DNA from: Tubiluchus corallicola
Lineage: Eukaryota; Priapulida; Priapulimorpha; Priapulimorphida; Tubiluchidae
Assembly: GCA_030141605.1 (NCBI GenBank)
Contig: JAQGDQ010000054.1
Span: 124,001 to 188,000 of the forward strand
Direction of reading: 5' to 3'
Length of the DNA stretch: 64,000 nucleotides
Below, in pieces: positions 118 through 34,300 of this stretch; the stretch's first letter is position 1, and every line of letters starts with the position of its first letter. The notes under the pieces are model-generated. The model was not told the DNA's origin, searched no databases, and saw only the letters and a list, made by a program, of their open reading frames with translations. The translations under genes were made by a program, and so were the position numbers.

Positions 118-1311
118 TTATCCCTCTGAATGTTGATCTTCTCCTGTATCACTGGGAATTGGTGTACGGTTGTCAGAAAATAAAGGATTTTTTACTTCCA
201 TTTCACAAGTCTGCAACAAAAAGCATAAAATTATAAGAAAAAATAACCAACATACAAAACTGAATCACAAAAGTAACAAACTAATGAGTTTGCCTTATTA
301 CGCTGCACTTATAGTTTTATAATGCTCAAATACTACATAGATAAATATTAAATAAATAAAAGAAACTGATGTTCTGTTTACTTCTTGGTCAAAATTATGT
401 CCAAGCTAGAATAAGTAAACAAACTACATACCGGTGCTAGACCTGGGCATTCGTAAACAGTATAATCTCCTTCTTCATTTTCTTCGTCACTTTCTTCATC
501 ACTGGCATTGTCCTTCATCTCATTGCTCGCCCTGCAAATAAAGCAAATAGGCATGACTGAGAACTGTAACATGTACACAGTTGCTTTACAAATATTTGTG
601 CAACATTGCATTTCACAACATAAAGAACAAACTCAGTGATCAGCCGATCATGTAAACCTAAAAAATCTTGCAATGAGATTTTTTTGTTTATTGTTCATGT
701 TTATAAGCTTATTGTACCTAGATTGCTAGGCAAACTAGGAAATGTATCGTTTTACAATCAAAAGTAGTTGTAAACATTCTAATGCATTTATTAGTTAAGC
801 ACAAAATAGAGTTTAAGAAATATAATATATAAGTAGAAAGGCAAAACGTAAACGACTTGATAAACTGTCCACAAATTACTGACGAACTTAATGAACTGAC
901 GAATTATATTTAGCAAAAATAAAATTTGAAAATGACTGTGATAAAAAATCATCCTTTTGTGAAACACATGTTGTCCTTGATCTCTAAAAATCCAAGCATC
1001 TATTTTTGTTAAAATCTTTGTAATTAAAAACTTTTTATAACATTTCAGGTAAATCAATAAGAGTGATGCAAAATGCTATTATGAGTTGTGAAAATTTTAA
1101 CGAAATTTTTGAAAAAATAGTGTTTTATCTGCTAAACCAAGCTTACTTTTCCATTGCTATCATCTGTTGTTTTTGGTGTTGATAGTGGTACATCTGTGCA
1201 CTGGCTGCAAGTTTCCTGTCGCCACCAGTTTGCTTGGCATCTTTATTAGGTCCTGTAACACCATATGCTGGGTATTCGACATCTGATGCAGCTTTCACAT
1301 TCTTTTGCAAC
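118..1311 (-). CDS. NPDC1: NPDC1 exons 7-9: conserved cytoplasmic tail
   Basis: Exon 7 (1147-1311) encodes the juxtamembrane tail with a tyrosine motif (VEYPAYG) and the near-invariant MYHYQHQKQQM block. Exon 8 (432-531) encodes an acidic run (DEESDEENEEGD) followed by YTVYECPGLAP. Exon 9 (118-210) supplies TCEMEVKNPLF and an EG terminus before TAA. The acidic cluster and tyrosines look like sorting or phosphorylation signals, which is inference. Intron donors are GTAAGC and GTATGT, acceptors tttgcag and gttgcag. This is the part that identifies the gene. Confidence 0.93.
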
Positions 1312-4300
1312 CTGTAGAAAACAAAACAAGATCAAATTGTTGTAAGCAGAACCAATCAAAATTCATTCATTAAAGAGTCACTAGTGATTAGGAAAGTTAA
1401 CCTACCTGTACCAACAATAGCCTGCTCCTACCAGCCCCGCAATAGCTGCCACACTGCACACTGCAACAATCACTGCAAATACAGAAAGATAATGTAAATT
1501 GACAACGAACCATTTTAGGTTTTTAACAATGATAAGTAAACATCCCATTACAAATTAATCTTTCATGCTTTAATTTTCTTTCTACAATTTCAGAACTTAC
1601 TTATAAGCTACCAACAAAACAGAAAAAAACTGTTTTAACAAGTGTCAGTATGAAATATAAATTGCACAATACGTACAAATAAAAACAAGTTGGTCAAAAT
1701 GGCCATGCAGATTTTGGGTTCCAGGTTTTTGTAAGTCTTGGTATTGTCTAGCTGGTGTCGGCATTGGCTCGTGAGTGTGACCTTCATGTATGTCATTCTG
1801 AGTCTCTGAATTTTCATCTGGTTTCACGTAATCATTAGCAATTGGTTTTTCAACATTCACAGTCTCTTGAGGTTCTTTCACTTCGTAATTTGCTTCAGCT
1901 ACGTCACTGTTAGTTTCTTTTAAGTTATCGAGTTTGTTGCTTTCTAAGATAAAGAGAAGAAAAATATAAGTAATTACAACTTCATAAGCAAAATGCATGT
2001 CAGTTAGGCAAACAAATATATATATATTATGATCATATCTGGAGTCACATGTCCTTTGACATAATCCTTGCAATCACTTTAGACCACGCTGGCCTGTCAG
2101 CTGCAATCTCTCATGTCTCTGTATTTTTGATATCTAGTCTCTATATTGTTGATAAGATCTTTTTGGATAAAACTGATGTAAGTTAGCAGCTGTCCTCCTT
2201 ATGATATCTTTTCTTTCTTCGGTGTTTCTCTGAAAGCTAATTTTAATGGGCTGTCATCTGATATAAATAATAACTACACAACCAATCTGCTATGCCCCAT
2301 CAAGTGGGAACCAAAAAATAAATGGAAAAACAATGTAAAGTAATGCTATAGTATACATATACACATTCGTGTCAATAAATAATGTTACGTGAGCAGTTAT
2401 TATAACACCGCTAAGCTAAGACATCAAACCAAATTATTATTTATGATCCTCTATAACGGTTTCTTGGGAAGTAATGAGATGAGTCCCAAGCTGCTGGTAA
2501 TTGTGGCAAGCAACATTAATGCATCTGCCAAACGCGAAACGATGCCGTAAGCTTGTAATCATCAATTTACGTTCTCTGGAGATGGCTAAGATGAGGCATG
2601 ATGCATGCTGTAAGTTATTGTTTTGCTTGTTTGCATAACTGGTCAATTTTCATCTACTTTCATCAAAAGTAATACAAAAACTATGAACTATGAACTATGA
2701 AATAAGAACTATGAAAAGAAGAAAAATGCAAACCTGATAACTCTCATAAATTAATTACACACCTTTATTTACATGTAATGTATTTACTTGTGCATATACG
2801 CGACCATAACAACAATAAATTTCCAAATACGGTACTCTATGGTGAAAAAGCCTTTTCTGTTTGTGCTCCATCTCTCTGGAATAACTTACCTGTTGCTGTA
2901 TACTCAGCAAACTTATTAGACTCTTTTAAATGGCATCTTAAAACACATTTGCTTAGATCGTACTTTTTACAATGAATTAATTTTTTATGTTTTTTAAGTA
3001 TTTTCAATTTTAATGTATCTTATGAATTTTATATGTATTTTGCTGTTCAGCGTGTTGAATTTTAAATGTAATTTGCCCCTATACAAATAAACTTTATATT
3101 ATGTTACATTTACTTAAAGATAGCTTTGAATCTGTACCAGATTATACAAATGTACTTTTGTACCAATAAAAACGAAAGTATATATTTCTGGAAATTATTA
3201 TTAATTTAAATCTATCCAAATGCAAGACAAACTTTTTAATCAAAATTTTTTAGAACAATAAGAGTGCAGGAGGCTTCATTTATTAATTGTAAATGCTTCC
3301 CTTTCTCGAATGAAGTCATCCCACACAAATACTCGCTACGATAGGGGCTGTGTATGCTTATTACAGATAATGACTTGCTAGCATCGAGTTTGCCTTAGCG
3401 AAATGAGTTTTGTGATTAAATTAAGTGCACGGCGATGAACGATCATATTACCATTATATTACCGTCATGCAAGTAATGTTAGGTGCAGTTTAGCTAGAGA
3501 TTTAAGCAGTGAGCATACATGTCTACATAGTCTACATAGGGAAAGAAGGATACTTGCCAGCTGGCAATAAAACTGGAACCTCAGCTTGGCCCCGAGAATG
3601 GACGTCCACTTCTGCTCCCGCTAACCTATCTATTGTTTCATCCGGCAATTCTTCCAATTCTTTAATGAAAGTAAAGTTGCTATAGGTTCAACAAGTTATT
3701 CATGCACATCTTTTTTTACTTTATAAAGAAAACTTCAAACGTTTCAAAAACATACATAAGCAACACAAACATTTAAAAATGCAAAAGTAGGAAAATTAAC
3801 ACATATTATTTAAAATGAAATATGTTACATAATAGCAAAAATCTAATAGAAGTTCAGTTCCCAAAGTTCACACCAGAAATGAACGGTAAGAGGAATTACC
3901 ATTTGTCGCTCTACGAACACACCCAATAGGCTAATCATACATCATAATAATGCCATCAGAATCTTGTAACTTAACTGCTACAATAAATATAAAACATACT
4001 GACATTTACTTATCCACACATCACAGATAAATTAGCCGTAACCTGTTAAGAAATGTGAACTAACCTTTAGGAACTTGACTTGGACAGCAAATGCCGGCCA
4101 GTGGCAAAAAATCCTGGCAGTAAAAACCACGACCGCAGGTGGTGCCTTCTCGAATGTCACAGAATGCTACATCATTTTCAACAATGTCCCATTTAGGTTC
4201 ACCTTCTGGGCATATTGAGGCTGGAGTTACATATGGATACGGAGGCAGGGGAGTACCTGTCAGTAAAATGCGCATGTGAGATAAACTAAAAATGCGCATT

Positions 4301-7300
4301 TTCAAAATCAAAAGAAGAACATACAAATGCACAAATTAACAAAAACTTGTACGTTAAAACATTCTTCTCAAATTTTTATTCATTCTTGATTCAAATAATT
4401 GTACAAAATAATGATGTAATAAGTTACGTTACTCTTGTTCAAATTAACTAGCCAGAATAAAAGTTTTCAATGAGTTGAGGAAGAAAAGAAAAAAATTATT
4501 TGGTCGTATAATAGAAGAATGAGAATTTAGGCTGGCTTTGCAAAGTTGGACCTGTTAAGTGAAATGGAAGAGAATGAGTGATCTAACAGCAAGGTCTTAA
4601 CATTCACATCTTGACGTCTTAACAATTTTTGAGTGTCTCCTTTCTTTCTTTACAAACCAGAGCTGCCATCATTATAATACAGCTCTCCTGCACATTTCAC
4701 TGACACATAAAAAGCACACATGACTATTTCTTCAACATTTAATATCACTAAAACTCAGAATTCAAATCTGTCACATACAGTAAACAGATGAAAGACATAC
4801 CACATTCAGCTTCGCAGTCTTCCTTGGTCTCAAAATTGTTTCTATTCCCTAAACACCCGCCAAAAGTAAACTCCTCACAACTTTTTGTTTTTTGGTTAAA
4901 ATACCATCGCGGAAAATATCCCCTGCATGGGCCAGAGTCTTTTTCGTATTCGCAAGTTGGGACAGAATCACCTAAAAACAATAATTAAAGTAACTATGAA
5001 TTTCATGATAGACACACTGCAAAAAATCGTGATGTACTTAACACACGCACGCACGCACACACACACACTACTTAAACGTTTTAAAAATTTTAAGTAAGAC
5101 AGGTTGAATTTCGAAAAAGAGAAAAAACACAAAGAGGTGACAAATTACAACGGAGACAAAAATTTAGCTGTGAAGTCTTTACAAATGCTGTCTCTAGTAA
5201 CCGTAAACTTCTATTTTGTGTAACAATCAAACTGTAGCAACAAGACACTTAATGAGTTCATGAATAGTTTTCTGAATAATTTTGATAAAATATAGTAGAA
5301 AACTGCACCCACAATAACATATTAAGCACAGTGAATAAGCTTTTCAACAACAGATTTTGTTGAATAACGTAACTGCCACAGCAAAAAATTCAAAATTAAA
5401 AGCAACAGGAAAAGAACACACAATAATCTCAAAACACATTTCAGGTGATTTTAAAACAGGTTTCAGCTGATACTTCCTGACTTATACCCAAATGCTTGGA
5501 GCCAAATGAAGGTGTGGAACTGCACATTTCCAAAAAAAAACTAATGTAATACATGTATCTATAACGCAGGCTTCACAAAATGCAACAAAAACACCAGTTT
5601 AAAACAAACTGTGTGATTAAATAATGTGAATTATCAAAACTCGCACCTAGTGATTTAATTAATAGATATATACATTGGCATCTCTTGAGTGTGAACACAA
5701 GAAAATATACACCTATAAATGTGTTAAAATCATTATATTTTGAAACTTTTAAGGCTTAACCCTGTTTAACCCTACATCAAATTAAGCGTCGAAATATTAC
5801 GAATTAACACTTTCTAGATCACCCCTGTAGTATAAGTTGTAATCTTGGAGTACGTACACTGCAATTAAATTCTAATTACCGGCACAGCGAGCTACAGTTG
5901 TTAATCTGGCTATCGTTGGTTAAGTATTCATTGAAGCATACAATAAACTCGCATCAACTGAAATTGCTCATTAATATTTTAACGTTATTCACAGGATGAT
6001 TGCAAACGTAATCAAGCTGTCAGCAGGGGCTCTCGTTGGCTGCATAGTCAATGTAAAATGATTCTATAGGAATTAATAATATACACTGTTTTATGTGTTT
6101 ATACACACAATTTTTTTAGGCCTACCACCTTGTTTCATTATCTAAAGTCTTTCGGTATAGTAATTAGTCTATATTGTGTCTAAATTGACCTAACAGAGCT
6201 CTCTTATTTCCAGCAGGCTTGCATAATGCACAATGTCTAATTACAGATAAATGTTTTGCATACTACATGACCAGATTGGTTACATCGCACTTTAAGGCTT
6301 ATAATACAAAAAAGCGCATCCATAAGAGTTCAGAAAGTGCTAAAACAGACTAGGATAATGAAGAAAGTTACTTCAACTCTATACGAGAAACACTTCTTTG
6401 AAACTTATAACCAGAATCATAATTGCAACTTGTATTTTGTGCGAGCATCTAGTGCTCTCTTTTTTGTCTGAGAGCTTCGCACTAATGCTGAATTTACTGC
6501 TACTGTAAAAGCCAGGCAAAACCAGAACTTCCTTATCAAAGGAGAGATGCTAAGAAGAAACCAAGAACCATTAGAGGTGTCTTAGCCAAGTCAGAATGTG
6601 TGAAACGTATGCACATCCTCTATAAGCATTGATATAGTCAGAAACAGGAGGATACACGAAGCCGACCAAATGCAGTTATTCCGGCACACACCTGCTCAAT
6701 AAGAAGGTTCAGCACTGCTTAACTATTGTAGTCAACGTCACACATATAGTGACCACTCAGTCGCTCCTCTTGTCTAAGACTATTGACTAACATCTAGCTA
6801 GGCAGCTGAGAATAGTAGAATTCATTGCAGCACGATGAGATCTCTGTAATTCTCACAACGAGAACTAAAATTTATGTTTGTTCTTCTGACGAATGTAGTT
6901 TAAATTTTAATAACAAAAATCACCATTGCCGAACAAGCAATACATCCGTATTGCTGTCCATCATCATCATCACCATCGTCTTCATCATCATCATCATCAT
7001 CAACATCACTGTAAAACTGTACAAATACCGTAGTTTTTTGTCTAAACATATTTATTTAAATATACAGAATTGTCAATAAAGCAACAAGCTGCTTAACTCA
7101 AGATTCTTCTATAAACGTATTAAAAAAATTAATACCGTAATCAAGAGAAAATCCACATCACACCAATGGCACCATAATTAGTGAGGCCATGAAGTAATTA
7201 GTGAATACGTGGAAGGCTTCGAATACATTCTTATCTATTAATTACGTTGATAGCTCATGTCCGCCCAAAACTGAAGCCTATATTAACGTAAATGACCACA

Positions 7301-8685
7301 TGCAAATTAACAATAGAGTAGTAATGCCCTTTGTTAGAGCTCTCAACTAGTAATTAGCCTCTCATTGCATTAGATTCTAGCTGCAGCTAGTTCCGTTATT
7401 ATGGAAGGTAATTTAGACTCGTTAAATTGACTGAGTTTTCAATCTTGCATAAATGGTGATGTGACATCATCTTTTAAAGTATACGTTCCTCTGAATGTTG
7501 GAGGAATATCAAAGGAAGTTGTATGGTATTTTGAAAGCACAACAAATACGACCAGGCTAGCCTAGGCCCAGAGTGGAAAAGCATCGTGCCGGTCGTATTG
7601 ACAAAACAGTTAGAGAAGCTCCAATAAATCCGTAACTTTTGCGGGCTGGAATGGTCAGATCGGCTGACACTGTGGTTTAATCGACAATGGTTACTGGTCA
7701 GTGGCTGTGTCCAGTACTTAAATAATCGCACTAACCAAAGAGTAAGCATAGCGAACACCCAACAACAGATAAAGAAGTGGACTGGGGTCGGCGCCAGACC
7801 ATTTAAAGCCCAAATATGACGTCCATCTAATGTAATGCCACGTAATGCTAGGTTATGTAATATGCAATAATCTTGATAGAAGAAAAACACTATTGTGATG
7901 CAATCATAGCAAGCCATACTATTCCTGTTCATAGAGGGGGCATTTTGAATTAACCTACAATGGCATGAAAAAGCGCAGTGCGAAGCAGTTTAATAAATGG
8001 TCTATAATCCCGTTTTCATTTTCTCCAAAACTTAATCATCGAGTACATTTCCAGGGCAGAAGTCAAGGTCAAAATAAACACATTTATATTTTATGTAATT
8101 GGGTTACTTTCTACGTAAACATGTAATCAAGTTTATTTTTTAACACAATTAAATTTCAGCAGTAAAACACGCATGAGAAATTTTATTGATTTTCTTGCAC
8201 GGAATTACTTAAACCGTCAGCACAATTCGAACAGACTTTTGACTTTCAGATCACAAAAAGTTAATTAAAATACTAAAATCTAAGCACTTTGGCACGTTTA
8301 TTTGGATCGCATTGTGCGAAGTAATGTTTAACTCGATAAGAGTGTGTGTTATTAAGAGTCGCAAGAAGTGATTTAAAATACCTCAGAAATTAGCAATTAT
8401 GATTCATGTTAAAAATATGCATGCAGTTTGCAAAAGCAAATGCAAAGCATCCAACATTTTTCACTATTTTTGGATTATTTTTCCGTTTTTTATTATGAAC
8501 ATGTTACAATGAAAAATAAACTAAAGTCGAAATAAAAGCTCGATTAAGTGCATTTTATGTATTTTTCCTCAGTGAAGGAAATATATAACATTTTGAAAAT
8601 AGAATTAGGTGATAGTACCTGATAACTGAGGGAGTGTGTGTGCGTGAGCGAGCAAGAGGGAGAGGGAGAAAGACCGAGAGGGAGG

Positions 8686-8729
<44 letters not shown>

Positions 8730-9877
8730 GCTAGTAGATATTTCAACAGCATTTAAAGACTGAAACATTTCACACTTGACTAGCAACTGTCAGTCTTGCT
8801 TTCTGTATTCTGTAAATATAATATCATATTAGAATGAATGGTTTCAGATCAAAATCTGCAAATACTAATCCATAACTTTGTTTATACCTGACTGTACCTG
8901 GTCGAGTACGGTTATGCACTATAGTTTAGAGTTATTCAGTGTTACTCACTTTGCCTCCTAAAGCCTCCTACCCCAGCCCCTTAAAGAATCCCAACTTTTT
9001 AAAACCCAGGTACACATCTAACCCGCAGTACCTAAATACATATAAAACATGAATTTAACTCAAGGGGTTAATCGAAGAACTGATCGATGTCTAATGTCTT
9101 AACCCTTTGACAGAGGTTATTGTTCACACCACACAAATTCCGAAGTTCCTTCTCAGATGTCTACTCAGTAAGTTTCGTGACTTCAGGCCCTCTCACTCTA
9201 GCAAATGCAAACTAACGTGGATTAAAAAATGGGTGACTGACATAATGAAATTATGAAAAATCAGCGTATGGGCTGACCAAGATCCACGATAGAGCACTTG
9301 CAGATAAAAAGTTAAAATCCATTAATGTCTGACATAAATTTTAGGGGCGAATCTCCACCATTTAACTTACTCTGAAAAAATCTGTATAAATGCTGAAACG
9401 TTTCTTAAAAATACAAAGAAAGCGCATAAATTTCAGTAAACAATTTTTAAAACATTTGACTAAATACTTTAAATCACCATTGCACCTTAAACTTCTTTGC
9501 GTATGAGGGATCCTGATTTTCGTGGCTATTAAAGTAAGTAGCCAATTGCGGAAATTCAGCTACATTCAGCTATTTCGTCTACATTTTATTAGCCTGGTTA
9601 AAAGGAGTTAAATCAGCAAAGTTTAATTAAAAAAACATTAATTACAAATTAACTGAACAAACACGAGACCGACAAAATTACGAATAGGTTGCTTGCTCGC
9701 AACTACAAATAGTCAAAACAAAACGAAAATTTACCGCACTAAAATAATGCGAATTTAAGCTACCATATGGTCGCTACTTTGAGCAACATACATACCACTA
9801 GGATTATAATCTATAGAAACGGCATGGCAGAAAATGTCTGTGAGAAGAAGCAAAGTGGTCACCAACACCGGCACCAT
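118..9877 (-). CDS. NPDC1: NPDC1 homologue with Kunitz and lustrin-type ectodomain (complete, 9 coding exons)
   Basis: Coding exons in transcript order (all minus): 9796-9877, 4801-4971, 4065-4256, 3558-3659, 1677-1943, 1406-1472, 1147-1311, 432-531, 118-210. Phases join to 1239 bases, 412 residues plus TAA. The predicted product is a type I membrane protein: signal peptide (1 to about 21), Kunitz domain (C34-C84), six-cysteine lustrin-like module (C100-C142), acidic Glu/Asp/Asn-rich stalk, transmembrane helix about 268-293, then a cytoplasmic tail. The tail carries the NPDC1 hallmarks QMYHYQHQKQQM, DEENEEGDYTVYECPGLAP and MEVKNPLF, close to the vertebrate family. Vertebrate NPDC1 and nematode CAB-1 are linked to neural differentiation and to synaptic/secretory function; the role here is inferred. 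Vertebrate NPDC1 is about 325 residues with a different Cys-rich ectodomain, so the protease-inhibitor-like ectodomain is the oddity. The fourth intron has two possible splice solutions (see findings). Confidence 0.93.
1406..1943 (-). CDS. NPDC1: NPDC1 exons 5-6: acidic stalk and transmembrane segment
   Basis: Exon 5 (1677-1943) encodes a hydrophilic stalk rich in Glu, Asp, Asn and Thr that ends FDQLVFI. Exon 6 (1406-1472) encodes the rest of one hydrophobic helix, LIVAVCSVAAIAGLVGAGYC, followed by WYR. The helix is split by an intron of 204 bases with a GTACGT donor and a tttgcag acceptor. The stop-transfer side begins RLQKNVK, matching the CW(C)RLQ start of the vertebrate NPDC1 cytoplasmic tail. 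The stalk has no cysteines. Confidence 0.88.
2778..3110 (+). mobile_element. Truncated LINE 3' end in an NPDC1 intron
   Basis: A 65-residue ORF carries YGEKAFSVCAPSLWNNLP followed by LDSFKWHLKTHL, the C-terminal signature that follows the reverse transcriptase in CR1/Jockey-type non-LTR elements. An AT-rich tail ending with AATAAACTTTATATT follows, as expected for a 3' UTR. The copy is 5'-truncated and lies antisense to NPDC1, inside its fifth reading intron (1944-3557). It has no intact enzyme. Confidence 0.8.
3558..3659 (-). CDS. NPDC1: NPDC1 exon 4: stalk segment with GC or GT donor
   Basis: The exon encodes the stalk ELEELPDETIDRLAGAEVDV followed by about 15 further residues ending near VLLPA. 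The acceptor is ttcattaaag. Using the strong GC donor (CTG|GCAAGT) at 3557-3556 keeps phase with the acceptor at 1944. A GT donor four bases further (AA|GTATCC, exon end 3554) keeps phase only with a second AG that makes the next exon start at 1939. Both readings give 412 residues and differ only at the junction. Confidence 0.75.
4065..4256 (-). CDS. NPDC1: NPDC1 exon 3: six-cysteine lustrin-like module
   Basis: The exon encodes a Pro/Tyr-rich linker (TPLPPYPYVTP) and then a short cysteine module with C100, C117, C125, C131 and the doublet C141-C142. The C..G.P.....C......C..G..C........G.CC pattern resembles lustrin-type cysteine-rich repeats, which accompany Kunitz domains in many invertebrate secreted proteins. 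Acceptor ctgacag and donor GTTAG; both boundaries are phase 1, so exons 2 and 3 form a symmetric cassette that could be skipped or shuffled without frame loss. The family assignment rests on the cysteine pattern only. Confidence 0.75.
4801..4971 (-). CDS. NPDC1: NPDC1 exon 2: Kunitz/BPTI inhibitor domain
   Basis: The exon encodes one complete Kunitz domain with canonical cysteine spacing C-x8-C-x15-C-x7-C-x12-C-x3-C (C34, C43, C59, C67, C80, C84). It has the GPCRG reactive loop, the FxFGGC motif and a paired NNF. The P1 position is Arg44, which in this family predicts inhibition of trypsin-like serine proteases. The acceptor is tttttag and the donor GTATGT; both boundaries are phase 1, as is typical of shuffled extracellular Kunitz exons. 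The module is therefore an extracellular, potentially functional inhibitor fused to the NPDC1 membrane protein. Confidence 0.95.
5041..5068. repeat. (AC)n microsatellite
   Basis: Alternating acacgcacgcacgcacacac-type dinucleotide run in NPDC1 intron 1. Confidence 0.9.
6958..7008. repeat. (CAT)n trinucleotide repeat
   Basis: Imperfect run of CAT/CAC/CGT triplets with six uninterrupted CAT units near 6984-7002, in NPDC1 intron 1. Confidence 0.9.
8651..8730. repeat. Homopurine tract with (AG)n core
   Basis: An almost pure A/G strand for about 80 bases, with an uninterrupted AG dinucleotide core at about 8690-8726. Long mirror-type purine tracts can adopt triplex (H-DNA) structure; here that is only a possibility. 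Confidence 0.9.
9796..9877 (-). CDS. NPDC1: NPDC1 exon 1: start codon and signal peptide
   Basis: The minus strand reads ATG at 9877, giving MVPVLVTTLLLLTDIFCHAV, a short n-region followed by a Leu-rich core: a typical cleavable signal peptide. The exon continues SIDYNPS and ends with one base of a Gly codon before a GTATGT donor. The Kunitz exon begins with the two bases that complete Gly, so phase and topology both support the join. The ORF is too short to stand out by length alone. The first intron is long, 4824 bases (4972-9795). Confidence 0.85.
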
Positions 9878-10012: not shown

Positions 10013-10020
10013 TGACGTCA
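10013..10020. promoter_or_regulatory. Palindromic CRE motif upstream of NPDC1
   Basis: Perfect TGACGTCA, the full cAMP-response-element palindrome bound by CREB/ATF proteins, 136 bases upstream of the NPDC1 start codon. The transcription start has not been located, so promoter position is inferred. Confidence 0.4.
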
Positions 10021-10894: not shown

Positions 10895-13020
10895 AGCGAA
10901 ACGTTTAATTAGAAAAATTTAAAACAATCATAACATTTACAAAAAAAGAGAAATCAGTTTAATAATCTTAATAAAAGCTTAAAAAATAAATATATACAAC
11001 AACAATGTAAAAACGCAACAAATTCTAAAGAAAAATGGAAGAATATTAACAACGTAATAAATAAATGCCGTAACAAACTAACGCGTATTAACGAAATTAA
11101 AATCAACAACACTGTTGTTACAGCCCAAAGATATTGCCAACGTGCTAAATGCAACATTCCTGAATCTTGGAAATTTTAGGGAAGTGGCTTCTCAAATTAG
11201 CAATAATATAATTAACAAATTAAAAGGGAGTGGACCATCAGATATTCCTATCAAAATTTTAAAAGATAGTGCATCTGTAATAGCCCCGCATATGCCTTAC
11301 ATTGCTAATCAGATAATTACGAGAGGTGAATTTCCAACTGTATGTAAAATGGCAAACGTGACTACAATCTACAAAAAAGATTCAAAATGTGACCCCATGA
11401 ATTATCGTCCAATATCCGTAACACATTGTTTTGGCAAAGTTTGGGAAAGGTTTATTTATGATCAGATATTCTCATACGTAAATAAACATGAACTTTTATC
11501 AAAACATCAGTTTGGCTTCCGTAAACACCATTCAACCATTGATGCCCTAATACACACTACAGAAAATTGGAGATATAGCTTAGACAACAAACAATACATT
11601 TTAGCAGCATTTTTGATTTAAGTAAAGCATTCGATAGCATTAATCACAAACTAATTTACGATAACTTAAAACAAACCAGATTTGATTTGATATCGTTAAA
11701 ACTGATACAAAATTATCTCAAAGATAGACAACAACGAGTAAAGTCAGATACAACCAACTTTTCTGACATTGAACAGAGGCATACCACAAGGAACACTACT
11801 AGGTCTGTTATTATTTTGCCTATATATAAACAACATATCTAATGTATTACAACACTCACAAATTACACAATACGCTGATGACACTACAATCTACTTAGCC
11901 CACGAAAATATCCAAACTGCAAGAAATTATTTAGAAAAAGATATAAGAAAAACAAATATGGTGTTTAGTCACTGTAAGCTAAAAATGAATAATTGTAAAA
12001 CAGAATTCATGACACTGTCACCCTCATTAAGCCCTAATGACGTATCAACAACCACTTTGACAATAGATAATGCTGTACTCGAACAAACTAGTAATGCTGA
12101 ATTTCTTGGCATACAGGTAGACAATAATCATTTATGGGATTAACACTTTAATAATATATACATGTATATAAAAATGGCATCTAGCACATCATATCTCCGA
12201 CAAGTTAAAGGGCAACTAACATAACAAACTAAGACACTAATATACAAAACTTTAATTCTACCACACTTCTTATATGGATGTATGCTACTTCAAAAAACCA
12301 AAAGAGAAAATTACTTAAAATTAAATCTCCTTCGGAACTATGCATTGAGATTAATAGCTGGATACTCATACAAAAATAAGTTAGGTAGACAAAAATTCAA
12401 AGCTTCAACAACTAACCTAAGAAAAGTTTTAAAACTTCCAATCATTGAAGCAAACAAAGAATATTTTACTCTGCTCTTTATATTTAAATACATTAACAAC
12501 ATCAGCAAACCATTCCAAAATCACAGATTTACCTTTTTTCCAAATCCAATCGTTAATTCCAGAACAAGTAATCAAAAACAAATTAGGACAAATACCCACT
12601 ATGGAACGAACTCTGTAATCAAGCGAGCAATTCTACTTTGGAATTCTCTACTATTACAGGTTAAACAAATCAGGTACCTATCAGCATTTAAAACAATATT
12701 AAAATCCTTAATATTAACCAGATATGAAATACCATCACACCAGTACGGCAATATATACACTAATTCAAATTTATATATTCACAGCCATATTAATTAAATC
12801 GTAATTTTTTATTATTGGTGAATAGTTGTAAATACGCTTTATTTTCATTCGTCATAAATTTCTTTACTGCACAGTAGTTTAGATTGCACTGACGCATTTG
12901 CCTTTAGCAGTGTAAGTTTTTATTAACTAACACGGATTGATCATCTCTGTAAAGTTTTTATTCAGTGATTATCAATGTATTTTAATGGCAAATAAACATT
13001 ATTTTATATATATATATATA
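10895..13020 (+). mobile_element. Decayed LINE with reverse transcriptase remnant
   Basis: A plus-strand non-LTR retrotransposon relic. A pre-RT linker (INEIKINN at about 11090) is followed by RT motifs in shifted frames: NYRPISVTHCFGKVWERF and KHQFGFRKHHSTIDALIH (11115-11621), DLSKAFDSINHKL after a frame change (about 11614), then GIPQGTLLGLLLF and the catalytic QYADDTTIYL (11769-12143), then a thumb/C-terminal region (12282-12797). Stops and frameshifts near 11619, 11765 and 12142 make it inactive. The 3' end is an AT-rich tail finishing in a (TA)n run at about 13004-13020. The endonuclease is missing (5' truncation). The overall look is Jockey/CR1-like; clade uncertain. Confidence 0.9.
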
Positions 13021-28327: not shown

Positions 28328-31300
28328 ATGGGCTCATTGGATGGACTCAGTTCTAAGGATTGTATTCAAGATCATAACTGTGCTAGTAACACAGACTGGG
28401 ATATGTTTGCTCCTTTGGACCAAGCTGATCCTGAAGTGTGGGCTATTATGCAGGTAATATTTATTAGCTAACTTCTGTGGGGGAAACTGAAATGAATGAT
28501 CCAAAGAAAGACAATTGTCCATGTAAAATAAGTAGACATAATATAATTTTACATTTTGGCCTTTATATCTCTGTGTTATTTCTGCATAAGTATCTATTCT
28601 GATGATGGCCAAAGAATAAAGGGCTGAAGCATAAAATTTAATTGTCTACTTGTTTTATATGGGTACTGTCTTCCTTTGGATCATTAAATTTATAAATGTG
28701 CACATTAAAACTGTAGTATTGTGTACTATCATAATTGTGATGGACACAATATATAACAGTGGTTCACACATAACAAAATATTGTGTACAGAACTGTTAAA
28801 CCACGTAACTGTTTGGCCAAGGCCAAGCTAATAATAATTATTTGTTACATTTTTGACATTTGAGTTATTCTATAAATTACATATGGTACCTACACATATT
28901 AATATTGGATTTAATATTAACTTTATTAAAGACATATTTCAGCTAAGCAGTAGTTACTATCATTGTAATATGTGTAGCCAAAATTTTGCTTTCAATAAAA
29001 TTTCTTTAGTACGGGATTATGTGATTTTAAGTATTAATGTTACTGTTTTTGGCATTTAGAATTTGTTGACTTTACAAGCACGTGTCTAATAATAGTTGTC
29101 ATCATCAGTAGTTGGTTTTTATCTGAGCACTGCTTTGTTGTAAAAGGGTATTGTAAGAGGACTATCTTTTCCTTAAGAGTTCTAATTTTTGTTGATTACA
29201 TTTGACTTTGTGTTAACTAAAGTTAATGTATGTCAGAGTGATGTGCGGTCTTTACACATGACTTGAGAATATTATTTGCTTCTAAAAGGCGTGCTTCGAA
29301 TATTAAAAAAAATGCTGCTTAGTGATTTAGAGTATCTAAGGCACCAAATGTTGTGCTGTTATTTGTTCTACAGCTATGCAATACATATTTAATTAGGCTG
29401 CTTACAGGTATAGTTCAACGATAGCAACGGTGGCAATTAAGAGTTAATGTAATTAAACTGTTATGCTTTTTCAGCCTTCTTCAGCAGCTGCTCATAATAA
29501 TGAGTATGAGAAACATTATAATCGCAACTTTAAAAAGTAGGCGAACAGACCCACATGTTGCAAAACATTTTTAAAAACATGTAATTTCCATACCTAATTA
29601 GAATTTGGTAATTTAATATAAAATTCTTAAGAAGTACCTGATACAGAATCAGAAGGTTATTGACCTAGAAATAATTATTGGCCCTAGCTGTCTGAGAGAA
29701 CTTGTTGACCTTTGTACTCACTTTTACTTGTTATTTAATGACATGTGTGCTTAGCCAGCAAGTATTTTTCCATGGAAAATAGATTACAGCTGTCAGTTAG
29801 TCTATGTTCACTCAAGAATTGCTAGCTGTTTTCATAATTATGTATCACTGATTTGTACTCACTGAGAGCCAAGATTTAACTTGAAATGATTATTGAATCA
29901 GTGATAGCAGAACATAAAAAATTAGCAGTTACGACCAATTTCTTTATTACTGGTGCTTTTTGTCGTGCAAAGACATTTAAAACGAAATCCTAGTAATAAG
30001 GAAATGTGTTTTCCCTTGGTTTTCTGGTATTGTGTCTTATTATCATTGAAAGTGGTTATGGATTTATTATACTCTGGGATTGCAGTCTTAAGGTTGATGT
30101 GTTTATAGTTCTGAGTACCAGGACTAATAAATCACCTTATAGCAGACTCAAGAGATAATGAATGGCAAAATTTAATTTACCATGATACGAATTAGCATAA
30201 AGGAAAAAAAGTTCATGAATATTGTCTTTAGCAAATGATTTAGTTAGGACTGGTCATCTGATTCTAATTGAATTCAACTCTCAAACTCTACATAACTCTA
30301 AATGTTACAATTGAAATAATGCCCAAAAATACAAAAATGGAGCTTAGCTACTGTTTAATACTTTTTTGAAGCAGGAACAAATGAAAATTAAAACAATTTA
30401 TTTGTTGAAAAGGGTGCATTATTGTGTTAATCTTACTTTACATGAGAGAAATCTAAATTCATACTGAATTATATCAGCATATAAGTTTTTCGGTGTTGCA
30501 TAATTTTAAATTTATTGTTTATGTGATTACAGAGAGAGAAGCGCAGACAGACGGTTGGCTTAGAACTCATTGCATCGGAGAATTTTCCTAGCCGAGCTGT
30601 GATGGAGGCACTTTCCACTTGCCTACAAAATAAATATTCTGAAGGATATCCTGGTCAAAGGTTTTTGTAATTTTTAAAATAGCAATTAACATGTTAAATT
30701 GGTATCATTGAGTCTAAATCGCAGAATCTTTGAACACGCAAGATTCTTTATATTTGCCATTGTTTACAACAAAAATTTGTTTTTTGCTTTTGTGTATAAT
30801 AAAATTAGATTTTTGTGTATCTGCAAAGACTATTCAAAATTATTAAAATATCGAAAAAATATCAAAAGTACTAAAATTCAAACAATGTGTGTTGTAAGTA
30901 TTACAATATAAGTTTTATATACACCTCACATGACTGATTTCACAAGCAGCCCTTCTGAAAGGTATAGGCCAAGTGCACATGCTTTGCGTGAATGATTGAC
31001 GACTACCTGAGCCCAGTACTCGCTTTAGCTCTACCGATCTTCACTGTTTGCCTCGGGAGGGAGGATGTGTGAATTACACATGCATTCAAATGTTCCTGAG
31101 AAATCTCTGTTGGTTTAGTAACTCATCTTAAAGGGATGTCTCGATAATGTGGCAGGCTTGCAATATCTTGTGGATTCAGCTTCTTTCCAGTATAAAAATT
31201 ATTGACCTTGTTCATACTTTGTTTCAGGTACTATGGTGGAAATGAACATATTGATGAGATGGAATTACTCTGTCGCAAAAGATGTCTGGCCGCATTTGAC

Positions 31301-34300
31301 TTAGACCCTGCAGAATGGAGCGTAAATGTGCAGCCTCTCTCTGGCTCACCGGCTAACTTTGCCGTTTATACAGGTGTTGTCGGTCCACATGGCCGAATCA
31401 TGGGACTAGACCTCCCCGATGGCGGTCATCTGACACACGGATTTTTTACAGAAAAGAAGAAAATTTCGGCCACTTCTATATTTTTTGAATCAATGCCTTA
31501 TAAAGTTGATCCAGAAACTGGATTGATAGATATGGATAAACTTGCAGAAACAGCTCGACTATTTCGACCGAAGCTAATTATCGCAGGTTGTTTCATTAAT
31601 AGTTGCTGATAATTAATAACTGTAAATTGGTTACAAAAAACTTGTTATATTGTCAGTTAAGCTTTTGTGTTTTAAATTACTGCATGTCTAGGATTCTTGT
31701 AAGATACTGTTGTAAGTTAACTTTATTACTTTTCAGTGGTTCACCTATACTATAATTGGTGCAGCACGAGTCCTTCAGTTGCTGTTTTTCCTTAGTTGAT
31801 TGTTAAAAACAACAGATACAATACGATTTAGTTCGGTTCTCACTCTGGGTGATTTCATTTGCCATGCCAATCCTGGCTGTTTACCTCGTAGAGGGAGGAT
31901 GTATATATATCGAAATGTGGCTGAGATACCTCTGCCAGTTGTATGACTCATCTTAGGGGATATCCTTCATAATGACCTGGGTTCTGGTCACACGTCAGTC
32001 ATCATGTTGAGTAGGCACTGCTGTTGGATGCTGGCTTGAATGTATAAAGAAAGTACAAAATTAGCCGTAAACTTCAAATTTATGATATTATCATGATTTG
32101 TAATGAACTGACTTATAGTATACATTTTTGTCTTTGAGTGCCTATAAACTGTATCCTGTTTTAATTTCTACATGTCCATAGAGATCTCAATTCCAGTTTG
32201 CAATTTTTTGCAGGAGTGAGTTGTTATTCTCGATGTTTGGATTATGCCCGTTTTCGTAAAATCTGTGATGACGTTGGTGCTTACTTGATGGCTGACATGG
32301 CTCATGTTAGCGGTCTTGTCGCAGCAAAATTGATCCCCAGTCCATTTGAATACAGTGATATTGTCACAACTACCACACACAAGACACTTCGCGGTCCAAG
32401 ATCTGGGCTTATTTTTTTGAGGAAAGGTGAGAGATTAAATGGTACTTTAATGTAATTACAGACTGAAAACAGTGAAAATGAATAGCTGGTGATGTTTCTG
32501 ATATCTCAGAAACTGAAGGTTTTTGATAAAGTAATGGTGGTCAGTTCACTTAAGCTGTTTGTGCCTTACTGGGTATCAGAAACAAGTCAAATATACCTAA
32601 ACGTCAGACTATACTCGTTAAAAAGAACATCCAGTCTGTAGATCATTAACATTTTATCACTTTGAAAGTTTGTATAACCTGCTAAGCAAGTGTGCTGTAA
32701 CCCATATAGTTTTGAAATGAAACCAATCTAATGTTCATTAATTAGTTTTTGATTTTTGCCTTTTTTGATTTGTTGATGAGCATCACATTAGGTCCACAGT
32801 CTTATGATGCTGGTTCTTATGCTTTTTGAGATATAGCGACAAAGTTTGTACAATACATAATAAACAACTTGGTTTTACTGTAAATGAAATCATAATTCTT
32901 AGGTCATGGTGTGCTTATTTCAAAAATGTACTCAATATTTGTGTCTACAGCTTTCATTAAATGTAAAAATGTGTAAGTAATATGATGCAGTTAGTTGCTA
33001 GATAAAATCTTAAATTGTCTGATTTACAGATTTGCACCTGCAAAATAGAGAAAGTCAGCAATGGCTACATATCCTACACTCTCTACAGGGTGCTAACAAA
33101 TTATTCAAATCCTTGTACTGAAAAGACAAAAATGTATTGGTAAAACATGAAAAAGCAGTAATTTTGAATAAAGAACACTTGTTGACATCTGACCTTGCTG
33201 GCATTTACAGTTCTGATGATCATTAATCAACTGGGAGTACAGTCACAGGAGTTTCTCAGTGAGACTGTGACATGACTTTTTCCTACAAACTTTAATGATT
33301 TTTGCTTTCTGCCGTGCCGATAAAAGTTGCTAAAAATTAGGAAAACCAATTATAACACGGAAAACTTAGAAAAGTGTATTATAACATACATTTATATCTG
33401 TAATAACTTTTCAACTATACCATAAGAAGTTCTATAATTTCTTTGTGTTCTGTAGATTAACGAGTTTCAGTCTGACGTTTCGATTTTTACCCGCACAAAG
33501 AACATTAGAGGAAAAATTAGATATTGTATAGATTTAAAAAAAAATAACAATAAAACTGTTTTGTAATGTTTCTTTGTAGTTTTGTTTTAAGCACAATTGG
33601 CCTTCGTGTCTGACACAAACTCTTAAAAGAATAAAATATATTCCAACTATAACCCGAAGCATGATATTTTGCAGAACAAATAGTATGTATGGCAAATTCA
33701 TCTTTTTTGCAGAAATTATTTGTTGCTTCAGTGTGATTATGTGAGTGCTTTCAATAACATAGACTGCTTTTAATCTTACAGGGGTCCGATCATACACAAA
33801 ATCTGGCGACAAAGTTATGTATGACCTAGAAGACAAAATAAATCAAGCACTTTTCCCTGGATTGCAAGGAGGTCCTCATAACAATATCATCTCATGTATG
33901 TATTTCTCTTAAGTTTGTGTCTATTTTTAATAAATTCAAACATGCCTGATACAGAACTCTAGAAAAAAACCTTGAAAATGTGGTATAACAGTCACCTACA
34001 CAGTTAATTTACTGGTTAATTTAAGTAGGTTAACTAAGTTTGAGTATGATGATATATTTTTATAAACTTGAGAAGTTTTAACAATTCTTGTATTTGGCAC
34101 TTCCATTCTAAACAGGGAAGCCTATCTGCACAAAATATTTGTTTTGCCTAAGCAGTAACAGTAAATATCATTTTTGCCTCAACTGAAGAAGTTCATAATA
34201 TGGTTGGCTTCTAGTTAGATATGCACTTTAGGGACATGTGTCCCAAGTTATAAATTGCCAAAATTAATGGTGGTTTAGTAAATTGGCAAACTAATTTTTT

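What the first reader, a model, noticed from the sequence alone, without database searches (positions are those of the whole stretch)
4065..9877. NPDC1 with a Kunitz inhibitor and lustrin-like ectodomain
The cytoplasmic tail and transmembrane part are unmistakably NPDC1, yet the ectodomain is a canonical Kunitz domain (P1 Arg44) followed by a six-Cys module. Vertebrate NPDC1 lacks both. Signal peptide, phase-1 module exons and frame continuity across nine exons argue against an artefact. It would be a membrane-tethered trypsin-like protease inhibitor on a neural/secretory adaptor tail, perhaps the ancestral form lost in vertebrates. I do not recall it being described.
Basis: partly seen in the sequence, partly recalled or inferred. 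Interest (0 to 1): 0.75.

Follow-up and report, generated by a model that had tools for sequence, protein, structure and literature searches.

The report
NPDC1 membrane protein carrying Kunitz inhibitor
In this unnamed animal genome, a membrane protein whose tail takes part in secretory-vesicle traffic in other animals appears to carry an extra protease-inhibitor domain on its outer side, so the exons suggest a tethered inhibitor, though no RNA evidence was available to prove the parts are joined.

Summary
On the minus strand of 118-9877, nine exons in one frame give a 412-residue protein: signal peptide, Kunitz domain (P1 Arg44), six-Cys lustrin-type module, acidic linker, transmembrane helix, NPDC1 tail. 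Pfam finds NPDC1 (7e-40), Kunitz (1.1e-18) and a borderline lustrin module (26.5 bits against 27; 29.8 and 30.7 in shorter pieces). NPDC1 matches elsewhere in the genome: none. The tail keeps the acidic TLY-type motif that, in human NPDC1, binds the Golgi tether TBC1D23. The Kunitz, lustrin and two linker exons are all phase 1-1, so each could be inserted or skipped in frame. Best reading: a membrane-tethered inhibitor or hook for trypsin-like proteases on a recycling secretory-pathway tail, working like HAI-1/2 or Kunitz-bearing APP but a member of neither. Splicing of the exons together is strongly suggested, not shown; a two-gene reading survives. 'Ancestral form lost in vertebrates' could not be tested. 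In the held papers no text was found that joins NPDC1 with Kunitz. New variant of a known kind.

The parts
9796..9877 (-). exon 1: start codon, signal peptide (MVPVLVTTLLLLTDIFCHA), donor in phase 1
   Evidence: in-frame stop upstream; one of 2 signal-peptide-like first-exon candidates with a strong phase-1 donor on the minus strand of 4972-31000, by a crude rule of my own
4801..4971 (-). exon 2: Kunitz domain, P1 Arg44, phase 1-1
   Evidence: Pfam PF00014 E 1.1e-18; matches to solved Kunitz inhibitors; spacing and key positions
4065..4256 (-). exon 3: six-Cys lustrin-type module, phase 1-1
   Evidence: Pfam PF14625 26.5 bits in the whole protein (cut-off 27), 29.8 and 30.7 bits in pieces, 31.6 bits in the genome scan
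3558..3659 (-). exon 4: acidic linker, phase 1-1, GC donor
   Evidence: resemblance to the EEEIDLLA stretch of the vertebrate-type piece not significant
1677..1943 (-). exon 5: acidic juxtamembrane linker and start of the transmembrane segment, phase 1-1
1406..1472 (-). exon 6: rest of the transmembrane helix
   Evidence: mean hydropathy 3.01 over residues 268-286
1147..1311 (-). exon 7: NPDC1 cytoplasmic tail (AASAQMYHYQHQKQQ)
   Evidence: PF06809 exon match E 9.7e-9; transmembrane segment plus tail identical to L059 in 41 of 78 columns
432..531 (-). exon 8: acidic cluster and acidic TLY-type motif EEGDYTVY (residues 368-375)
   Evidence: PF06809 exon match E 4.6e-6; motif scan with the definition of PMC11093223
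118..210 (-). exon 9: tail end (EMEVKNPLF) and stop

Best explanation
One NPDC1 gene has a phase-1 Kunitz exon and a phase-1 lustrin-type exon between its signal-peptide exon and its linker exons. The product would be a type I membrane protein of the regulated secretory and endosome-Golgi route. On the lumenal or outer side the Kunitz domain (loop GPC-R-GYF) would dock into the active site of a trypsin-like serine protease and inhibit or hold it; the lustrin module is probably a spacer or matrix contact. The tail, by its acidic TLY-type motif, would return the protein from endosomes to the Golgi through TBC1D23 and, as for C. elegans CAB-1, serve dense-core-vesicle release. Shown here: domains, frame, phases, no second NPDC1 match in the assembly, tail motif, TBC1D23 C-terminal domain encoded in the same genome. 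Inferred: splicing of exons 1-3 to 4-9, inhibition, target protease, place in the cell.
For: Nine-exon open model with compatible phases. Three Pfam families along one protein. The NPDC1 profile lists only exons 7 and 8 of this gene in the whole assembly, even at E 10. Exon 1 is one of 2 signal-peptide first-exon candidates in 26 kb, with A at -3 and G at +4 around the ATG. Kunitz positions that I recall as important for inhibitors are present: G12, R15, G16, F33, G36, G37, N43, F45. Closest solved relatives are inhibitors such as SmCI, TFPI, boophilin, HAI-1, bikunin and APP. Acidic TLY-type motif present; a human NPDC1 tail peptide binds TBC1D23 at about 3 uM (PMC11093223, passages); TBC1D23_C exons are in this genome. 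CAB-1/NPDC1 acts in dense-core-vesicle release (PMC8612575, passages).
Against: No transcript or second species shows the junctions. Exon 3 read through its donor meets a stop at once (PKG then stop), so a short secreted product is formally possible. Exon 4 has a GC donor and no significant similarity to the vertebrate-type piece (914 of 5000 shuffles reach its score). An in-frame ATG at 1998 followed by a hydrophobic stretch could start an NPDC1 form without the Kunitz and lustrin exons. The lustrin match is under its Pfam cut-off in the whole protein. Kunitz domains can lose inhibition. Single-sequence models were poor (mean pLDDT 58.0 and 62.0).
Confidence: 0.6

Rival explanations
1. Two genes lie head to tail: a small secreted Kunitz-lustrin protein (exons 1-3, ending at the stop just inside intron 3) and an NPDC1 gene that starts further in, for example at the ATG at 1998 or at an exon not found.
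For: Stop directly after exon 3 if its donor is not used. ATG 1998 is in frame with exon 5 and followed by a hydrophobic stretch. Kunitz and lustrin exons are plentiful in this genome: 109 and 47 listed matches.
Against: Exon 3 has a donor close to consensus (AAG|GTTAGT) in the phase that exons 4 and 5 need. The hydrophobic stretch after ATG 1998 includes the pyrimidine tract of exon 5's acceptor. NPDC1 would then lack any cysteine-rich ectodomain. By my rule no signal-peptide first exon with a strong phase-1 donor lies between 4972 and 9795 or in 1500-4970; ATG 1998 itself could not be judged by that rule, which looks only 240 bases ahead for a donor.
Confidence: 0.15
2. The gene is one, but the Kunitz and lustrin exons are cassettes used only in some transcripts, as the Kunitz exon of APP is (recalled); the plain NPDC1 form skips them. 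This is compatible with the best explanation.
For: Exons 2, 3, 4 and 5 are each phase 1-1 and a multiple of three (171, 192, 102, 267 bases), so any may be skipped in frame.
Against: Nothing here shows skipping. Phase 1 is also what Kunitz exons in this genome mostly show at their 3' side whatever their use: 34 of the 38 places with a donor-like site behind the last Cys, of 86 places examined.
Confidence: 0.35
3. The Kunitz domain is not an inhibitor but a binding module (adhesion, matrix, channel or receptor contact) on an NPDC1 tail.
For: Some Kunitz domains have non-inhibitory roles (recalled; dendrotoxins and collagen VI are among the matches).
Against: P1 Arg, P1' Gly, G36, G37, N43 and the six cysteines are all kept.
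Confidence: 0.2

Closest known systems
NPDC1 of vertebrates and CAB-1 of C. elegans
   Same: Transmembrane helix and tail: Pfam E 7e-40; 41 of 78 columns identical to a vertebrate-type piece, L059; acidic TLY-type motif.
   Different: Kunitz and lustrin-type modules in the ectodomain; the profile's first 203 positions match nothing in the window protein. Neither a whole vertebrate NPDC1 nor CAB-1's ectodomain was seen.
HAI-1 and HAI-2 (SPINT1, SPINT2)
   Same: Membrane-tethered Kunitz inhibitors of trypsin-like proteases that also act as chaperones for matriptase (PMC12940448, passages); HAI-1 Kunitz among the matches.
   Different: Pfam finds no MANEC or PKD domain here; the tail is that of NPDC1.
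APP and APLP2 with Kunitz exon
   Same: APP Kunitz is among the closest solved structures. That APP is a type I membrane protein of the Golgi-endosome route with a skippable Kunitz exon is recalled.
   Different: No other APP domain found by Pfam; a likeness of working only.
Kunitz and lustrin multi-module genes of the same genome (contigs C2314, C1961, C767)
   Same: Same two module types side by side (33 of the 47 lustrin and 18 of the 109 Kunitz matches lie on C2314). Kunitz followed by a donor-like site in phase 1 in 34 of 38 places.
   Different: Lustrin modules there were followed by phase 1 in 7 and phase 0 in 6 of 13 places with a donor-like site, of 110 pattern places, so phase 1 is not their rule. 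The NPDC1 lustrin module is divergent: at most 16 of 43 identical among the best-scoring others printed. Whether these genes have membrane anchors was not examined.

Membership tests
NPDC1 (PF06809) | transmembrane helix and conserved tail | tested here: met
   137.5 bits against cut-off 23, residues 263-401, profile 204-343 of 352
NPDC1 (PF06809) | ectodomain as in the profile (positions 1-203) | tested here: not met
   match starts at profile 204; the linker-to-membrane piece alone also matches only 204-237. The family name rests on the membrane and tail part.
NPDC1 (PF06809) | acidic TLY-type TBC1D23-binding motif (reported for human NPDC1) | tested here: met
   EEGDYTVY, residues 368-375, fits the loose definition in PMC11093223; binding not tested
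Kunitz/BPTI domain (PF00014) | six cysteines with the family spacing, profile match | tested here: met
   67.6 bits against cut-off 21; C8C15C7C12C3C
Kunitz inhibitors of trypsin-like proteases | basic P1 residue and kept binding loop | tested here: met
   P1 Arg44; G36, G37, N43 in BPTI numbering
Kunitz inhibitors of trypsin-like proteases | measured inhibition | not testable with these tools
   needs protein
Lustrin cysteine-rich repeat (PF14625) | profile match over the curated cut-off | tested here: inconclusive
   26.5 bits in the whole protein, cut-off 27; 29.8 and 30.7 in pieces; 31.6 in the genome scan
HAI-1/SPINT1 | MANEC and PKD-like domains beside Kunitz | tested here: not met
   three Pfam families found up to E 10, none of these
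APP family | APP extracellular domains and tail | tested here: not met
   none found up to E 10

The most novel reading that the evidence does not exclude
The protein is a recycling receptor or chaperone for trypsin-like proteases: the lumenal Kunitz domain grips the protease (or its zymogen) and the NPDC1 tail, through TBC1D23 and the dense-core-vesicle machinery, sorts or retrieves it, with skipping of symmetric exons switching between protease-binding and plain NPDC1. NPDC1 would then have begun as, or become in this lineage, a cargo adaptor for secreted proteases.
Probability: 0.15. Interest if true: 0.7.

Novelty: new variant of a known kind. Interest (0 to 1): 0.45.

Why it matters
NPDC1 is called largely uncharacterised (PMC11093223, passage); for its ectodomain a preprint reports binding of alpha-synuclein fibrils and a complex with mGluR4 (PMC12330738, title and passages), but its normal lumenal task is unclear. 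A form with a built-in, readable binding module (a Kunitz domain with P1 Arg) gives a concrete, testable guess at what the lumenal side handles: trypsin-like proteases. If the form proves widespread in invertebrates, it would bear on what NPDC1 did before vertebrates.

Tried and rejected
Single-sequence structure models of the lustrin exon and the Kunitz exon gave low confidence (mean pLDDT 58.0 and 62.0). The Kunitz model was searched against the PDB: 293 matches at E <= 10, of which 20 at E <= 0.001, and these 20 are all Kunitz domains (50 rows shown). The lustrin model was not searched. By sequence, the lustrin exon has no PDB match at E <= 10 and the tail one chance-level match, E 0.72. 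NCBIfam: no match.

Similarity of exon 4 to the EEEIDLLA stretch of the vertebrate-type piece was tested by shuffling and rejected as evidence: 914 of 5000 shuffles of exon 4 and 1226 of 2000 of the pre-membrane region reach the score.

A common phase rule for the lustrin modules of this genome was looked for and not found: phase 1 in 7 and phase 0 in 6 of 13 places with a donor-like site, of 110 pattern places, some of which are chance or overlapping matches.

Search for NPDC1 outside this genome: genome contigs gave 1 relative from 55 pattern stretches, L059, a contig filed as a bacterial MAG whose first 0.54 kb is a spliced vertebrate-type NPDC1 piece, taken as contamination or a chimera; viral contigs gave none from 7 stretches; that MAG has no Kunitz match. 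So no invertebrate orthologue could be compared and the age of the architecture is open.

Naming the animal: mollusc haemocyanin, annelid erythrocruorin linker and COX1 gave no match, but the tool says that misses prove little. Of the phosphagen kinases (6 exon matches), L060 has as best PDB matches a two-domain arginine kinase (both halves summed) and then creatine kinases; a third locus looks, by eye, like arginine kinase. Phylum not settled.

A CRE-like TGACGTCA at 10013 upstream of exon 1 was dropped as evidence: the window holds four. Paper searches gave background only.
Full report
The observation. I rebuilt the gene on the minus strand. Exons, in window coordinates: 9877-9796, 4971-4801, 4256-4065, 3659-3558, 1943-1677, 1472-1406, 1311-1147, 531-432, 210-118. 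All eight junctions are in phase; seven introns are GT-AG and one GC-AG (after exon 4). The product is 412 residues. An in-frame stop lies upstream of the ATG. hmmscan against Pfam gives NPDC1 7e-40 over 263-401, Kunitz_BPTI 1.1e-18 over 33-84, and Lustrin_cystein 8.1e-6 over 100-143. The last is just under its curated cut-off in the whole protein (26.5 against 27 bits) and over it in two shorter pieces (29.8 and 30.7 bits) and in the exon-wise genome scan (31.6 bits).

Is it one gene? There is no RNA. Points for: phases agree throughout; a scan for first exons with a signal-peptide-like start and a strong phase-1 donor found 2 candidates in 26 kb (4972-31000, minus strand), one of them exon 1 (a crude rule of my own, not a trained predictor); the NPDC1 profile lists only exons 7 and 8 of this gene in the 343.5-Mb assembly, even at E 10; the Kunitz-lustrin stretch matches only itself at DNA level. 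Points against: exon 3 runs into a stop directly behind its donor, so a secreted form by intron retention or a separate gene is possible; exon 4 has a GC donor and no significant likeness to the vertebrate-type piece; an ATG at 1998 in frame with exon 5 is followed by a hydrophobic stretch, although that stretch includes the acceptor's pyrimidine tract read as codons.

The Kunitz domain. Its spacing is C8C15C7C12C3C; in BPTI numbering it has G12, R15, G16, Y17, F18, F33, F35, G36, G37, G40, N43, F45. Among solved structures 137 distinct sequences match the ectodomain at E <= 0.001 (60 shown), headed by SmCI, TFPI and boophilin, with HAI-1, bikunin and APP next. In the same genome the Pfam scan lists 109 Kunitz matches. 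My stricter pattern, run over the window and the loci fetched around those matches, found 86 places with 78 distinct sequences (one match cut by a piece border was lost). The nearest to the window's domain has 30 of 51 identical residues. Of 58 distinct sequences with the same length, the window's included, 29 have a basic P1 (19 R, 10 K). It is an ordinary, fully equipped Kunitz domain, not a decayed one. Behind 38 of the 86 places a donor-like site was found within 60 bases; the first such site is in phase 1 in 34 and phase 0 in 4. Phase 1 is the phase used here.

The lustrin-type module is divergent: among the best-scoring others printed, none shares more than 16 of its 43 positions. For lustrin modules of this genome the same count gave phase 1 in 7 and phase 0 in 6 of 13 places with a donor-like site (of 110 pattern places), so its phase is not distinctive. 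Both module types lie together elsewhere: contig C2314 alone holds 33 of the 47 lustrin and 18 of the 109 Kunitz matches, and a Kunitz pattern is followed on the same strand by a lustrin pattern within 1.5 kb in 6 pairs, the window's among them. A source for both exons was thus at hand; which gene they came from is not shown.

The tail. Over the transmembrane segment and the following tail, 41 of 78 alignment columns are identical to a vertebrate-type NPDC1 piece (L059). L059 is the first 0.54 kb of a contig filed under a bacterial MAG and reads as spliced cDNA; I use it only as a comparison, and calling it vertebrate rests on my recollection of NPDC1. Pfam aligns it to NPDC1 positions 104-284, whereas the window protein matches only from 204. 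Human NPDC1 carries an acidic TLY-type motif whose peptide binds the Golgi tether TBC1D23 with KD about 3 uM (PMC11093223, passages). The motif as defined there, three or more acidic residues in five followed by [TS][LIV][YFW], occurs once in the window protein: EEGDYTVY, residues 368-375. The genome encodes a TBC1D23 C-terminal domain (2 exon matches). In C. elegans CAB-1/NPDC1 belongs to the pathway of dense-core-vesicle release from the intestine (PMC8612575, passages). NPDC1 is also named among cercaria-enriched genes of Schistosoma (PMC3166049, one passage), so the family is reported in other invertebrates; their ectodomains were not seen. The sequence VKNPLF near the end resembles an NPxF/NPxY sorting motif; this is recalled and untested.

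How it most likely works. A type I membrane protein cycles through Golgi, endosomes and secretory vesicles by its tail. On the lumenal or cell-surface side its Kunitz domain blocks or holds a trypsin-like protease. The ectodomain has no dibasic site and no N-glycosylation sequon, so convertase cleavage inside the vesicle is not expected and the inhibitor should stay tethered. HAI-1 and HAI-2 give the nearest working model: tethered Kunitz inhibitors that also help their protease to the surface (PMC12940448, passages; the string NPDC does not occur in its main text). APP with its Kunitz exon is the nearest model for cassette use (recalled). Both are likenesses of working, not kinship: no other domain of either was found.

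Is it known? Papers of the held library with both NPDC1 and Kunitz: 2, and in both the two words are unrelated. NPDC-1 with Kunitz: 0. 'NPDC1 domain' with Kunitz: 0. 'Neural proliferation differentiation' occurs in none of the 10 papers listed, which all hold Kunitz and lustrin. Most subscription papers, preprint servers and protein databases were not searched, and automatic annotation of this architecture in UniProt or InterPro is quite possible.

Verdict. A clean domain combination: NPDC1 family by its membrane and tail part, a Kunitz domain with all the marks of an inhibitor in its outer part. The mechanism is partly inferred, the joining of the exons is likely but unproven, and the evolutionary claim (ancestral, lost in vertebrates) is open. 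Shuffling of phase-1 Kunitz exons is a known kind of event, which limits surprise; the interest lies in the clue to what the lumenal side of NPDC1 handles.

Noticed in passing
L059:1-541 (QWHO01000076.1, filed as bacterium CPR1 MAG): A spliced vertebrate-type NPDC1 cDNA piece stands at the start of a bacterial contig: contamination or a chimera in a public MAG.
   Followed up: partly
G000 C1518:1-20000: Kunitz exons with identical scores occur on both strands in mirror order (for example 1997 minus and 17551 plus; 8181 minus and 11422 plus), pointing to an inverted duplication of about 10 kb or an assembly artefact.
   Followed up: no
G000 C2314:66000-137000: A large mixed array of lustrin (33) and Kunitz (18) exon matches, all on the minus strand, perhaps one or a few giant multi-module proteins.
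   Followed up: partly
window 1998-1941, minus strand: ATG in intron 4 in frame with exon 5, followed by a hydrophobic stretch (MHFAYEVVITYIFLLFILES): a possible alternative start for an NPDC1 form without the Kunitz and lustrin modules.
   Followed up: partly
window 11082-12797, plus strand: Open frames that look like a LINE-type reverse transcriptase (by eye), just upstream of exon 1.
   Followed up: no
window 31199-31609, plus strand: Serine hydroxymethyltransferase exon (Pfam E 2.4e-57).
   Followed up: no
window 10013-10020: Perfect CRE-like TGACGTCA about 140 bases upstream of the start codon; the window holds four such sites, so weak evidence.
   Followed up: no
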